This document shows, one piece after another, positions 17,338 to 63,612 of a stretch of 64,000 bases of DNA. The DNA lies in the NCBI GenBank assembly GCA_024998755.1, contig JACEUU010000002.1, positions 1-64,000 of the forward strand. The letters run 5' to 3'. Source of the stretch: Vampirovibrio sp. Lineage in GTDB: Bacteria; Cyanobacteriota; Vampirovibrionia; Vampirovibrionales; JAJTHC01. Below the pieces are notes generated by a model. The model saw only the letters and a program-made list of their open reading frames with translations. It was not told where the DNA came from and did not search any database. The position numbers and the translations under genes were made by a program. Within the stretch, counting starts at the first letter, position 1, and each line of letters begins with the position of its first letter.

Positions 17338-17868
17338 TTAGGCCTTAGCCCCTGCTTTTTCAGGACGAATAACAATTTCACCTGCTTCAACGGAAGCTAA
17401 TAATTTATGCAAGCCTTCAGGCGGAGGACCAGCTACTACATTACCAGTTGCAGGGTCATACGTTCCACCGTGGCAAGCACAATAAATGTTATTTTTTGCT
17501 TGTTGATATTGAACAGTACAGCCCAAATGGGAACAGGTTGCGTTGAATGCGTGCATGCTACCATCTGGCGAATGAATAAATAGGGCAGGAATACTACCAA
17601 ATTTAAAGTTTTTTGACGTACCGGCTGGAAATTCAGCCACTTTACCTAGTACTAATTTGTCAATTTTAATAGCGGTTGATTTGGGTGGCCATAAATAGCT
17701 AAGTAACGGCCCAGCTGCTACTGCAGCCATTACTGCACCAAATACACCAATCATGCCACCCATAAATAACCGACGAGACATTGTTTCACCAGCTGTTTCT
17801 GCTGAATAATCAAACGTTGGTGGGGTTTCAATTTTTTCTTCTTGACCTGTTGCCATCATCATCATCAT
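17338..17868 (-). CDS. petC: Rieske [2Fe-2S] protein
   Basis: Rieske subunit of the cytochrome b complex. The cluster motifs are CSHLGC (112-117) and CACHGG (130-135), giving the two Cys and two His ligands plus the disulfide pair. A twin-arginine-like SRRLFMGG (31-38) precedes the membrane anchor (about 37-58). The start has five ATG codons in a row (17868-17854); a GGAG sequence lies 11 bases upstream of the first, while a TTG three codons earlier would sit too close to it. Length is 176 residues. It is preceded by the bd-like gene and followed by cytochrome b in the same operon. Confidence 0.9.
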   Translation of the reverse strand: MMMMMATGQEEKIETPPTFDYSAETAGETMSRRLFMGGMIGVFGAVMAAVAAGPLLSYLWPPKSTAIKIDKLVLGKVAEFPAGTSKNFKFGSIPALFIHSPDGSMHAFNATCSHLGCTVQYQQAKNNIYCACHGGTYDPATGNVVAGPPPEGLHKLLASVEAGEIVIRPEKAGAKA

Positions 17869-62266: not shown

Positions 62267-63472
62267 TTACAAACTGGCTTGGGCATGAAACCGTCCATGA
62301 TGATGCTTCGAATGATGCGTAGAAGCCGTAGCATGGCTTCCTCCTTCAACTAAAGTGCCTTGCGAACGATTAACCGACGTTTTAGCCCCTATTGTTGGGT
62401 TGGCTACAATTGTTGCTGTAACTGGTTTAAGAGGCGAAACAATGGGTTTTTTAGTTATGGTGGAGGCTCCTAAAACCGTTGCTAACGTTGCAACTTCACT
62501 CAGCCGTACTTGTTCCACATAAGAAGGTTGTTGGGTAGCCACGGCTTTCGTTGTGTTTGGTTTTTCTGTTGTGGGAGGCGTCGTTGTCGCTTCCGTAATA
62601 CCCAAGAAAGTGGTATTAACCAGCAACGGACGCATAATGCCATAAGAAAGTAAATTAGAAATCATTACAAAGGCTAAAGAAAGCCCCGTTTTGTTATGGC
62701 CTTCATTAAGTGTGTTCCACGACCACTGCAACCCATCCGCGGTTTTATGTAAGCTTTTACCCACGGCTTGGTTTAGCCCTTTCCACCCTTCCGTTTTGGC
62801 TAGCCATTGTTCTGCCTGGTTGCGTACAACGTGGTTCTTTTTGCCCGCCAATGCAATGCCATCTACCAACGCAAAACTAGCTACAGCCTGCACACAATGA
62901 ATAGCAGCTCCAACAACTTGCCGAGCAATTTCTTGGTTATTAAGCAGTTTTTCTTCTTTGGGAGTGATTTTTTTAGCTTTTTTTAGCTCTTTGTTAATCC
63001 AAATCGTCGTCATAATGGTAACGATAGTAGACGGTACATATTGCATAACAACGAAGGCTTGTAGCCATTTGTTTACTTCGGTTTTACCCCCCGTAATAGC
63101 ATCTTTTATCTGCTGTTTTAAACTATCCACATAGGTATTGTTTTGAGTTAAGGGTCCGCCCACTTTTTGTTGTACGGTTTGCCAGATAGCATCTGCCGTT
63201 TGATGACTTTCTTGTTTTACACTGTTAAGTAAACTAATTAATTGGTCATCTGTCAAAGTGTGGTTAGGATGATTAACCAATAGCCATTCTTTAACTAGGT
63301 TAAGAATTTTCTTCGGGTTTTCTTCGGATTGTTCCAAGGCTTTTTTTAAGGGCGAATCTTCCGTTTTAGATGATTTTCCTGAACGCATACTAGCACCAGT
63401 AATAGAGGGTAAGCCCTGTTGATAGACCGATTTTCGGCTATTACTGTAGGGTGTTATCAATTGCATCATCAT
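62267..63472 (-). CDS. unknown membrane protein under a TPP riboswitch
   Basis: 401 residues from the ATG ATG ATG run at 63472, 11 bases after a GGAGG site that belongs to the riboswitch 3' end. A helical, charged N-terminal region (1-135) is followed by three clear membrane segments (about 137-159, 186-209, 262-290) and a Thr/Pro/Val-rich tail ending in a His-rich stretch (THHSKHHHGRFH). It matches none of the thiamine transporters or enzymes I know. The riboswitch implies control by thiamine pyrophosphate, so a role in thiamine uptake or use is possible but unproven. IS debris begins 22 bp after its stop, so any downstream operon partner may have been lost. Confidence 0.6.
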   Translation of the reverse strand: MMMQLITPYSNSRKSVYQQGLPSITGASMRSGKSSKTEDSPLKKALEQSEENPKKILNLVKEWLLVNHPNHTLTDDQLISLLNSVKQESHQTADAIWQTVQQKVGGPLTQNNTYVDSLKQQIKDAITGGKTEVNKWLQAFVVMQYVPSTIVTIMTTIWINKELKKAKKITPKEEKLLNNQEIARQVVGAAIHCVQAVASFALVDGIALAGKKNHVVRNQAEQWLAKTEGWKGLNQAVGKSLHKTADGLQWSWNTLNEGHNKTGLSLAFVMISNLLSYGIMRPLLVNTTFLGITEATTTPPTTEKPNTTKAVATQQPSYVEQVRLSEVATLATVLGASTITKKPIVSPLKPVTATIVANPTIGAKTSVNRSQGTLVEGGSHATASTHHSKHHHGRFHAQASL

Positions 63473-63479
63473 AAGAAGG

Positions 63480-63612
63480 TTTTCCTCCGCTGGCATTACC
63501 CAGATCAGGTAGTAAGGGTCCGTTACACCGTTGTTTCAGTAACGCTCTCAGCCGACTGTCAGCAGAAAAACTATCAAAGTTTTCTGTCGGGCGTCAGCTC
63601 CCCATGGGGTTG
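63480..63612 (-). promoter_or_regulatory. TPP (thi-box) riboswitch
   Basis: On the minus strand: GGGGAGC, a long P3 stem (GCTGAC..GTCGGC), CTGAGAG (63545-63551 region), ACCC, then CTGATCTGGGTAATGCCAGCG (split here as CTGATCTGGG and TAATGCCAGCG, 63508-63488) and GGAGG. These are the invariant pyrimidine- and pyrophosphate-binding parts of the thiamine pyrophosphate aptamer. P1 is not obvious. The 3' GGAGG is the ribosome-binding site of the next gene, so control is probably at translation initiation. Confidence 0.92.

What the first reader, a model, noticed from the sequence alone, without database searches (positions are those of the whole stretch)
62267..63612. TPP riboswitch controlling an unrecognised three-TM protein with a His-rich tail
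The thi-box elements (CTGAGAG, CTGATCTGGG, TAATGCCAGCG) are unmistakable on the minus strand, and the aptamer ends in the GGAGG that serves the next ATG. The controlled gene is not a known thiamine biosynthesis or transport family by eye: helical soluble N-terminus, three membrane spans, Thr/Pro linker, His-rich end. It could be a new thiamine-related membrane protein, or a riboswitch whose original operon was broken by the IS cluster that begins 22 bp after the stop.
Basis: partly seen in the sequence, partly recalled or inferred. Interest (0 to 1): 0.85.

Follow-up and report, generated by a model that had tools for sequence, protein, structure and literature searches.

The report
Vitamin B1 riboswitch, new membrane protein
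A genuine vitamin-B1-sensing RNA switch sits directly on the start of a gene for a previously unnamed small membrane protein, and the same pairing recurs across a whole order of Melainabacteria (relatives of Vampirovibrio) whose vitamin-B1-requiring members keep it without exception, so the protein is probably part of how these bacteria take up vitamin B1.

Summary
The finding holds up. RF00059 (TPP riboswitch) matches 63604-63482 (-): 42.6 bits, E = 5e-7 per genome, below Rfam's cut-off (54.3) but the only credible TPP hit in the genome. Its 3' strand supplies the Shine-Dalgarno of a 401-aa protein (62267-63472, -). The protein has no Pfam, NCBIfam, PDB-sequence or PDB-fold relative. An HMM finds the family in 17 of 18 genomes of the order (12 of 12 near-complete) and in none of 40 other genomes of the class. 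In 13 of the 17, a TPP aptamer lies directly upstream, each time providing the ribosome-binding site. The four without it all have thiC under a TPP riboswitch elsewhere. The ten genomes without thiC (this one included) all keep the riboswitch on the family gene. This genome keeps ThiL but lacks ThiC, ThiE, TPK and PnuT. So this is the riboswitch's native target, not an operon broken by IS insertion. Conserved core: three helices, E-x-x-R-Q, R-P; the His-rich tail and N-terminal domain are lineage-specific. Best explanation: a TPP-repressed membrane protein for uptake of thiamin or thiamin monophosphate, probably working as an oligomer or with a partner. Transport itself is inferred, not shown.

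The parts
63482..63604 (-). TPP riboswitch aptamer (RF00059, model positions 11-88), with extended P3 and P3a
   Evidence: cmscan 42.6 bits, E 4.3e-7; only credible TPP hit in genome
63630..63637 (-). candidate 5' strand of P1 (AAGGUUUU), pairing with 63476-63483, about 25 nt from P2 rather than adjacent to it
   Evidence: 8-bp perfect complement; found in 0.9% of shuffles of the 42-nt upstream stretch; forcing it costs about 1 kcal/mol in the constrained fold. Suggestive only
63476..63483 (-). candidate 3' strand of P1 (AAAACCUU), between Shine-Dalgarno and start codon
   Evidence: sequence
63484..63488 (-). Shine-Dalgarno GGAGG, part of the conserved 3' end of the aptamer (GCGGAGGA)
   Evidence: sequence; same arrangement in all 13 TPP-linked homologues
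62267..63472 (-). riboswitch-controlled gene, 401 aa, tandem ATGATGATG start
   Evidence: ORF; dN/dS about 0.2 against the C-terminal part of G001; homologues in 17 of 18 genomes of the order
63092..63352 (-). N-terminal helical domain, present only in family f1 (G000-G003)
   Evidence: alignment; AlphaFold pLDDT about 81-93 over most of it
63002..63058 (-). hydrophobic helix 1 (AFVVMQYVPSTIVTIMTTI)
   Evidence: hydropathy; alignment
62918..62932 (-). conserved motif E-x-x-R-Q (E181, R184, Q185 of the 401-aa protein; 182/185/186 in tool numbering)
   Evidence: nearly invariant columns
62861..62917 (-). hydrophobic helix 2
   Evidence: hydropathy; alignment
62618..62674 (-). hydrophobic helix 3, ending in the conserved R-P (62627-62632)
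   Evidence: hydropathy; P nearly invariant
62270..62476 (-). low-confidence Thr/Pro- and His-rich C-terminal tail, not conserved even in the same genus
   Evidence: alignment; pLDDT below 50

Best explanation
A TPP riboswitch represses translation of a new three-helix membrane protein family that serves thiamin salvage, most likely uptake of thiamin or thiamin monophosphate. When TPP is plentiful, the aptamer folds around its ligand and holds the Shine-Dalgarno, which is part of the aptamer's own 3' end. When TPP is scarce, the site is free and the protein is made. The protein sits in the membrane by three helices with a conserved E-x-x-R-Q at the start of helix 2 and R-P at the end of helix 3, probably on the same face. 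With three helices it would have to work as an oligomer or with a partner. In this genome imported vitamer would be finished by ThiL. Shown: aptamer match, RBS overlap, recurrence behind TPP aptamers, thi-gene pattern, purifying selection. Inferred: ligand binding and switching, membrane insertion, transport, and the vitamer.
For: TPP aptamer directly upstream of the family gene in 13 of 17 genomes. All 10 genomes with the family and no thiC keep it, against 3 of 7 with thiC (Fisher p = 0.015, not corrected for phylogeny). In the same 10 genomes the aptamer on this gene is the only convincing TPP aptamer. Own genome: no ThiC, no TPK, no ThiE, ThiL present at 215 bits over cut-off, no PnuT-type transporter. 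Family present in 12 of 12 near-complete genomes of the order. dN/dS 0.10-0.20. Three hydrophobic helices in most members. Established knowledge: membrane proteins under TPP riboswitches are typically thiamin or precursor transporters; PMC6593275 lists ThiT, ThiBPQ, PnuT, ThiV, YkoEDC, CytX, ThiW, and a 'ThiL/ThiN only' genotype that requires B1.
Against: No similarity to any transporter by Pfam, NCBIfam, PDB sequence or PDB fold. Three helices of moderate hydrophobicity are few for a transporter. Family members persist in thiC-positive genomes, four without a recognisable riboswitch. Other thiamin transporters (ThiT, ThiBPQ, YkoEDC, CytX, MFS) were not searched for, so another importer may exist. 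A sodium:solute symporter, the class to which ThiV belongs, is adjacent in two of the three families.
Confidence: 0.55

Rival explanations
1. The protein is an accessory, not the permease: a TPP-controlled helper or regulator of another transporter, for example the sodium:solute symporter whose gene lies tail-to-tail with it in families f2 and f3.
For: The SSF gene is convergent and adjacent to the family gene in the f2 and f3 genomes, even where the other flank changes from hemE (f3) to a solute-binding protein (f2). SSF proteins are found in 16 of 18 genomes. ThiV, a predicted HMP/thiamin importer, is an SSF protein (PMC11452348). Three helices suit an accessory subunit.
Against: The SSF gene is on the opposite strand with no TPP riboswitch found at it. 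In f1, including this genome, it is elsewhere (G000:C1:331894). Its closest models are general SSF/PutP, below all equivalog cut-offs, and its nearest solved structures are choline transporters.
Confidence: 0.2
2. A TPP-regulated membrane protein with another role in thiamin metabolism or in adaptation to thiamin shortage (a membrane enzyme, an exporter or a stress protein).
For: Conserved charged and polar residues (E, R, Q) fit many roles. It persists in thiamin prototrophs, sometimes without the riboswitch.
Against: Apart from this family, TPP aptamers in the class precede thiC, thiG, a thiamin-binding domain (PF01910) or other small membrane proteins, so the regulon looks like synthesis and acquisition only.
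Confidence: 0.17
3. The riboswitch is a stray: its true operon was lost when IS elements inserted, and the gene behind it is incidental.
For: An IS copy begins about 15-20 bp after the stop.
Against: Same gene, same junction in 12 other genomes of three families without that IS cluster; the Shine-Dalgarno lies inside the aptamer; purifying selection.
Confidence: 0.02
4. The RNA is a decayed or non-binding TPP aptamer.
For: Score below the gathering cut-off; J2/4 reads CUUACUACCUGAUC instead of CUUUGAACCUGAUC; P1 not matched by the model.
Against: Core recognition sequences intact; P3 and P3a keep pairing in G001 despite sequence change; the loss of score comes largely from long P3/P3a and P1; G001 has the same architecture.
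Confidence: 0.06

Closest known systems
TPP riboswitch (Rfam RF00059), translational type as in Escherichia coli thiM
   Same: Core sequence and P2-P5 architecture; Shine-Dalgarno at the aptamer's 3' end, start codon shortly after
   Different: Score below the family cut-off; long P3 and P3a; P1 apparently remote from P2; controls a protein family with no known link to thiamin
TPP-riboswitch-controlled thiamin/precursor transporters (ThiT, PnuT, YkoEDC, ThiW, CytX, ThiV)
   Same: Membrane protein whose gene follows a TPP aptamer in thiamin-requiring bacteria
   Different: Only three hydrophobic helices; no sequence or fold similarity found to any of them in the libraries searched
f7 proteins behind TPP aptamers in another family of the class (L043, L045, L047, L048; 168-229 aa where complete)
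   Same: TPP aptamer directly upstream; small proteins with two or three hydrophobic segments; an E near helix 2 and, in some, K-P near helix 3
   Different: No significant profile match (hhalign probability 0.6%, P 0.096); may be analogous or very remote relatives
Thiamine_BP domain proteins (PF01910) behind TPP aptamers in family f5
   Same: Short gene with the aptamer supplying the RBS, in the same class
   Different: Soluble thiamin-binding domain, unrelated sequence

Membership tests
TPP riboswitch (RF00059) | Covariance-model match to the aptamer | tested here: met
   42.6 bits, E 5e-7 per genome, although below the curated 54.3
TPP riboswitch (RF00059) | Intact pyrimidine- and pyrophosphate-sensor core (CUGAGA; GCG with ACCUGAUC) | tested here: met
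   Alignment; conserved in G001
TPP riboswitch (RF00059) | P1 helix closing the aptamer | tested here: inconclusive
   Not matched by the model; an 8-bp alternative exists about 25 nt upstream
TPP riboswitch (RF00059) | TPP binding and ligand-dependent regulation | not testable with these tools
   Needs in-line probing and a reporter
Known thiamin transporters (ThiT, PnuT, ThiV, ThiBPQ, YkoEDC, CytX, ThiW) | Sequence membership in a known transporter family | tested here: not met
   No curated Pfam or NCBIfam match; no PDB sequence match
Known thiamin transporters (ThiT, PnuT, ThiV, ThiBPQ, YkoEDC, CytX, ThiW) | Fold of a known transporter | tested here: not met
   Foldseek against PDB: best E 0.8 for the conserved core, 0.26 for the window protein; models only partly confident
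Known thiamin transporters (ThiT, PnuT, ThiV, ThiBPQ, YkoEDC, CytX, ThiW) | Vitamer transport activity | not testable with these tools
   Needs uptake assay
New TPP-linked three-helix family (defined here) | Significant HMM match with the E-x-x-R-Q and R-P core | tested here: met
   17 of 18 genomes in the order, 0 of 40 other genomes in the class
New TPP-linked three-helix family (defined here) | TPP aptamer providing the RBS | tested here: met
   13 of 17 genomes; absent in G006, G011, G013, G015 and at the second copy in G016

The most novel reading that the evidence does not exclude
A new family of thiamin-vitamer importers with only three membrane helices, under TPP-riboswitch control throughout an order of Melainabacteria related to the algal predator Vampirovibrio. 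In the thiamin auxotrophs, which keep ThiL but lack ThiE and thiamin pyrophosphokinase, it would bring in thiamin monophosphate directly.
Probability: 0.4. Interest if true: 0.75.

Novelty: new variant of a known kind. Interest (0 to 1): 0.62.

Why it matters
Riboswitches point to the function of unknown genes. Here one points, consistently across an order, at a protein family that the protein and structure libraries used here do not recognise. If it is a transporter, it is a minimal and structurally unassigned route for vitamin B1 uptake, it explains how many members of an order related to the algal predator Vampirovibrio obtain B1, and it gives a readily testable candidate for a missing step.

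Tried and rejected
Broken-operon reading: rejected, because the same junction exists in 12 other genomes. Start at 63496: rejected, because that ATG is inside the aptamer. His-rich tail as a functional mark: rejected, absent from G001 and all others. Pfam hits to Mlp, Myb-like and DUF4920: below cut-off or in a single member. Homology of the f7 proteins: not significant. PnuT: absent from the order. The search for related loci with the family alignment failed for want of conserved stretches; with the window protein alone it returned only one relative, a Lac Pavin 'Candidatus Melainabacteria' MAG contig of the same length as G001:C14. Literature searches found no paper holding both 'TPP riboswitch' and 'Melainabacteria'; the Vampirovibrio chlorellavorus genome paper says that it can make thiamin diphosphate (PMC4451040).

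Full report
OBSERVATION. On the minus strand, RF00059 matches 63604-63482 with 42.6 bits (E 4.3e-7 in 501 bp; 5e-7 for the whole 2.49-Mb genome). It is below Rfam's gathering score of 54.3, so the default scan lists only a tRNA, but nothing else in the genome comes near it (next hit E 6.5). The loss of score comes from an unmatched P1 and long P3 and P3a arms. The recognition core (CUGAGA, ACCUGAUC, GGUAAUGCC, GCGGAGGA) is intact, while J2/4 carries ACU in place of UGA. In the same-genus genome G001 the aptamer has the same architecture, and its P3 and P3a fold as hairpins although much of their sequence has changed. A candidate P1 (AAGGUUUU 63637-63630 with AAAACCUU 63483-63476) lies about 25 nt from P2; the 5' strand occurs in 0.9% of shuffles and forcing it costs about 1 kcal/mol, so it is only suggestive.

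The Shine-Dalgarno GGAGG (63488-63484) is the aptamer's own 3' end. The gene's start is the tandem ATGATGATG at 63472-63464, not the ATG at 63496, which lies inside the aptamer. The product has 401 aa and ends at 62267. Tool residue numbers are one higher, because the submitted stretch carried one extra codon. An IS copy begins about 15-20 bp after the stop.

IS THE GENE THE REAL TARGET? Yes. A protein search found homologues in the same genus and family and weak hits in other families of the order that turned out to lie directly behind TPP aptamers found independently. Reading the gene behind each aptamer gave family members behind it in G000-G005, G007-G009, G012, G014, G016 and G017, thirteen genomes in three families. 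In each, the start codon follows the aptamer's GGAGG- or AAGGA-type end within a few nucleotides, so the switch acts on the ribosome-binding site. A profile of these sequences (A1) finds the family in 17 of 18 genomes of the order (12 of 12 near-complete; the exception is 56% complete) and in none of the 40 other genomes searched in the class. The profile was built from most of these members; G006, G013, G015 and the second copy in G016 are independent finds. Four members have no detectable aptamer: G006, G011, G013, G015. G015 still shows what looks like the 3' half of one (CCGGGCATTGCCAGCGGAGGAACC). The gene is under purifying selection (dN/dS 0.10-0.20). In G001 it is split over two contig ends that overlap, and is followed by a convergent gene, so no thi operon is missing.

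THIAMIN CONTEXT. ThiC is present in G006 and G011-G015, and its first part, behind a TPP aptamer, at a contig end in G017. Strong ThiE-type matches occur in the same six genomes. Thiamin pyrophosphokinase is absent throughout the order and PnuT is absent. ThiL is present in this genome at 215 bits, over its cut-off, and in most of the order. All ten family-bearing genomes without thiC have the TPP aptamer on the family gene, and it is the only convincing TPP aptamer in each. Of the seven with thiC, three have it (Fisher p = 0.015; not corrected for shared ancestry). This genome therefore looks like a thiamin auxotroph that can finish TMP to TPP. Absence is judged on draft genomes (this one 94% complete).

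THE PROTEIN. No curated Pfam or NCBIfam match and no PDB sequence match. Most members have three moderately hydrophobic segments (Kyte-Doolittle about 1.1-1.9). AlphaFold gives a three-helix core with pLDDT about 90 for a compact member. For the window protein it gives a confident N-terminal helical domain found only in family f1, a moderate core and a disordered tail. Foldseek against PDB finds nothing significant for either (best E 0.8 and 0.26). Nearly invariant: E-x-x-R-Q at the start of helix 2 and P (usually R-P) near the end of helix 3. By topology these would lie on the same side of the membrane. The His-rich tail is unique to this genome.

NEIGHBOURS. In f2 and f3 the family gene is tail-to-tail with a sodium:solute symporter gene; hemE is on the other side in f3 only. 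The symporter passes no equivalog cut-off, and its nearest solved relatives are choline transporters. ThiV of SAR11 is also an SSF protein (PMC11452348), so a functional pairing is possible. In f1 the symporter gene is elsewhere, so adjacency is not required.

WIDER PICTURE. Of 289 genomes of the class, 42 have TPP aptamers. Outside the order they precede thiG (f8), thiC (f4), a Thiamine_BP protein (f5, PF01910) and, in f7, small membrane proteins of similar layout but without significant profile similarity.

MECHANISM AND VERDICT. The best reading is TPP-repressed translation of a membrane protein for thiamin-vitamer acquisition. The regulatory architecture is read directly from sequence and recurrence; switching, membrane insertion, transport and substrate are inferred. 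TMP is an attractive substrate, because ThiL is kept while its usual supplier (ThiE) and the bypass (pyrophosphokinase) are missing, but a thiamin kinase such as ThiK was not searched for. The riboswitch is a known kind; the protein family behind it appears to be unnamed, hence 'new variant of a known kind'.

Noticed in passing
L005/L026 7320-7413 (-) in G002; L061 (G024); L062 (G043): TPP aptamers carrying an insert of roughly 120-145 nt in J2/4, between ACCCUUA/ACCCGUA and ACCUGAUC, that folds into a long rod (whole stretch -54 to -69 kcal/mol). G024 and G043 share internal-loop sequences (AUAUGCAAGGCUURCGAAGUU ... UAUAACGCAGCAGAUGG). No Rfam match besides TPP. Could be mobile palindromes or an added RNA domain.
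   Followed up: partly
window 2690, 11756, 17854-17868, 20151, 40217, 45969, 54487, 63464; L023 6752-6763: ATGATGATG occurs 19 times in the window against 0.36 expected; most distinct sites are in-frame tandem start codons of genes (asnS, yajQ, petC, atpD, gyrA, mqnE, this gene; obgE just outside).
   Followed up: partly
L043, L045, L047, L048: A second set of small membrane proteins behind TPP aptamers in family f7, with a similar layout but no significant profile similarity to this family.
   Followed up: partly
L033, L034, L035, L040-L042, L061, L062: TPP aptamers directly in front of 113-124 aa proteins of the Thiamine_BP (PF01910) type in family f5; three were tested, two pass the cut-off and L034 is below it.
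   Followed up: partly
G000:C1:331894-333276 and G001:C6:3265-4656: The symporter homologue lies in an open frame of about 850-860 aa in this genus, against about 470-520 elsewhere, suggesting a fused extra domain.
   Followed up: no
G016:C73:1125-1616 (L095): A second, divergent copy of the family without a riboswitch.
   Followed up: no
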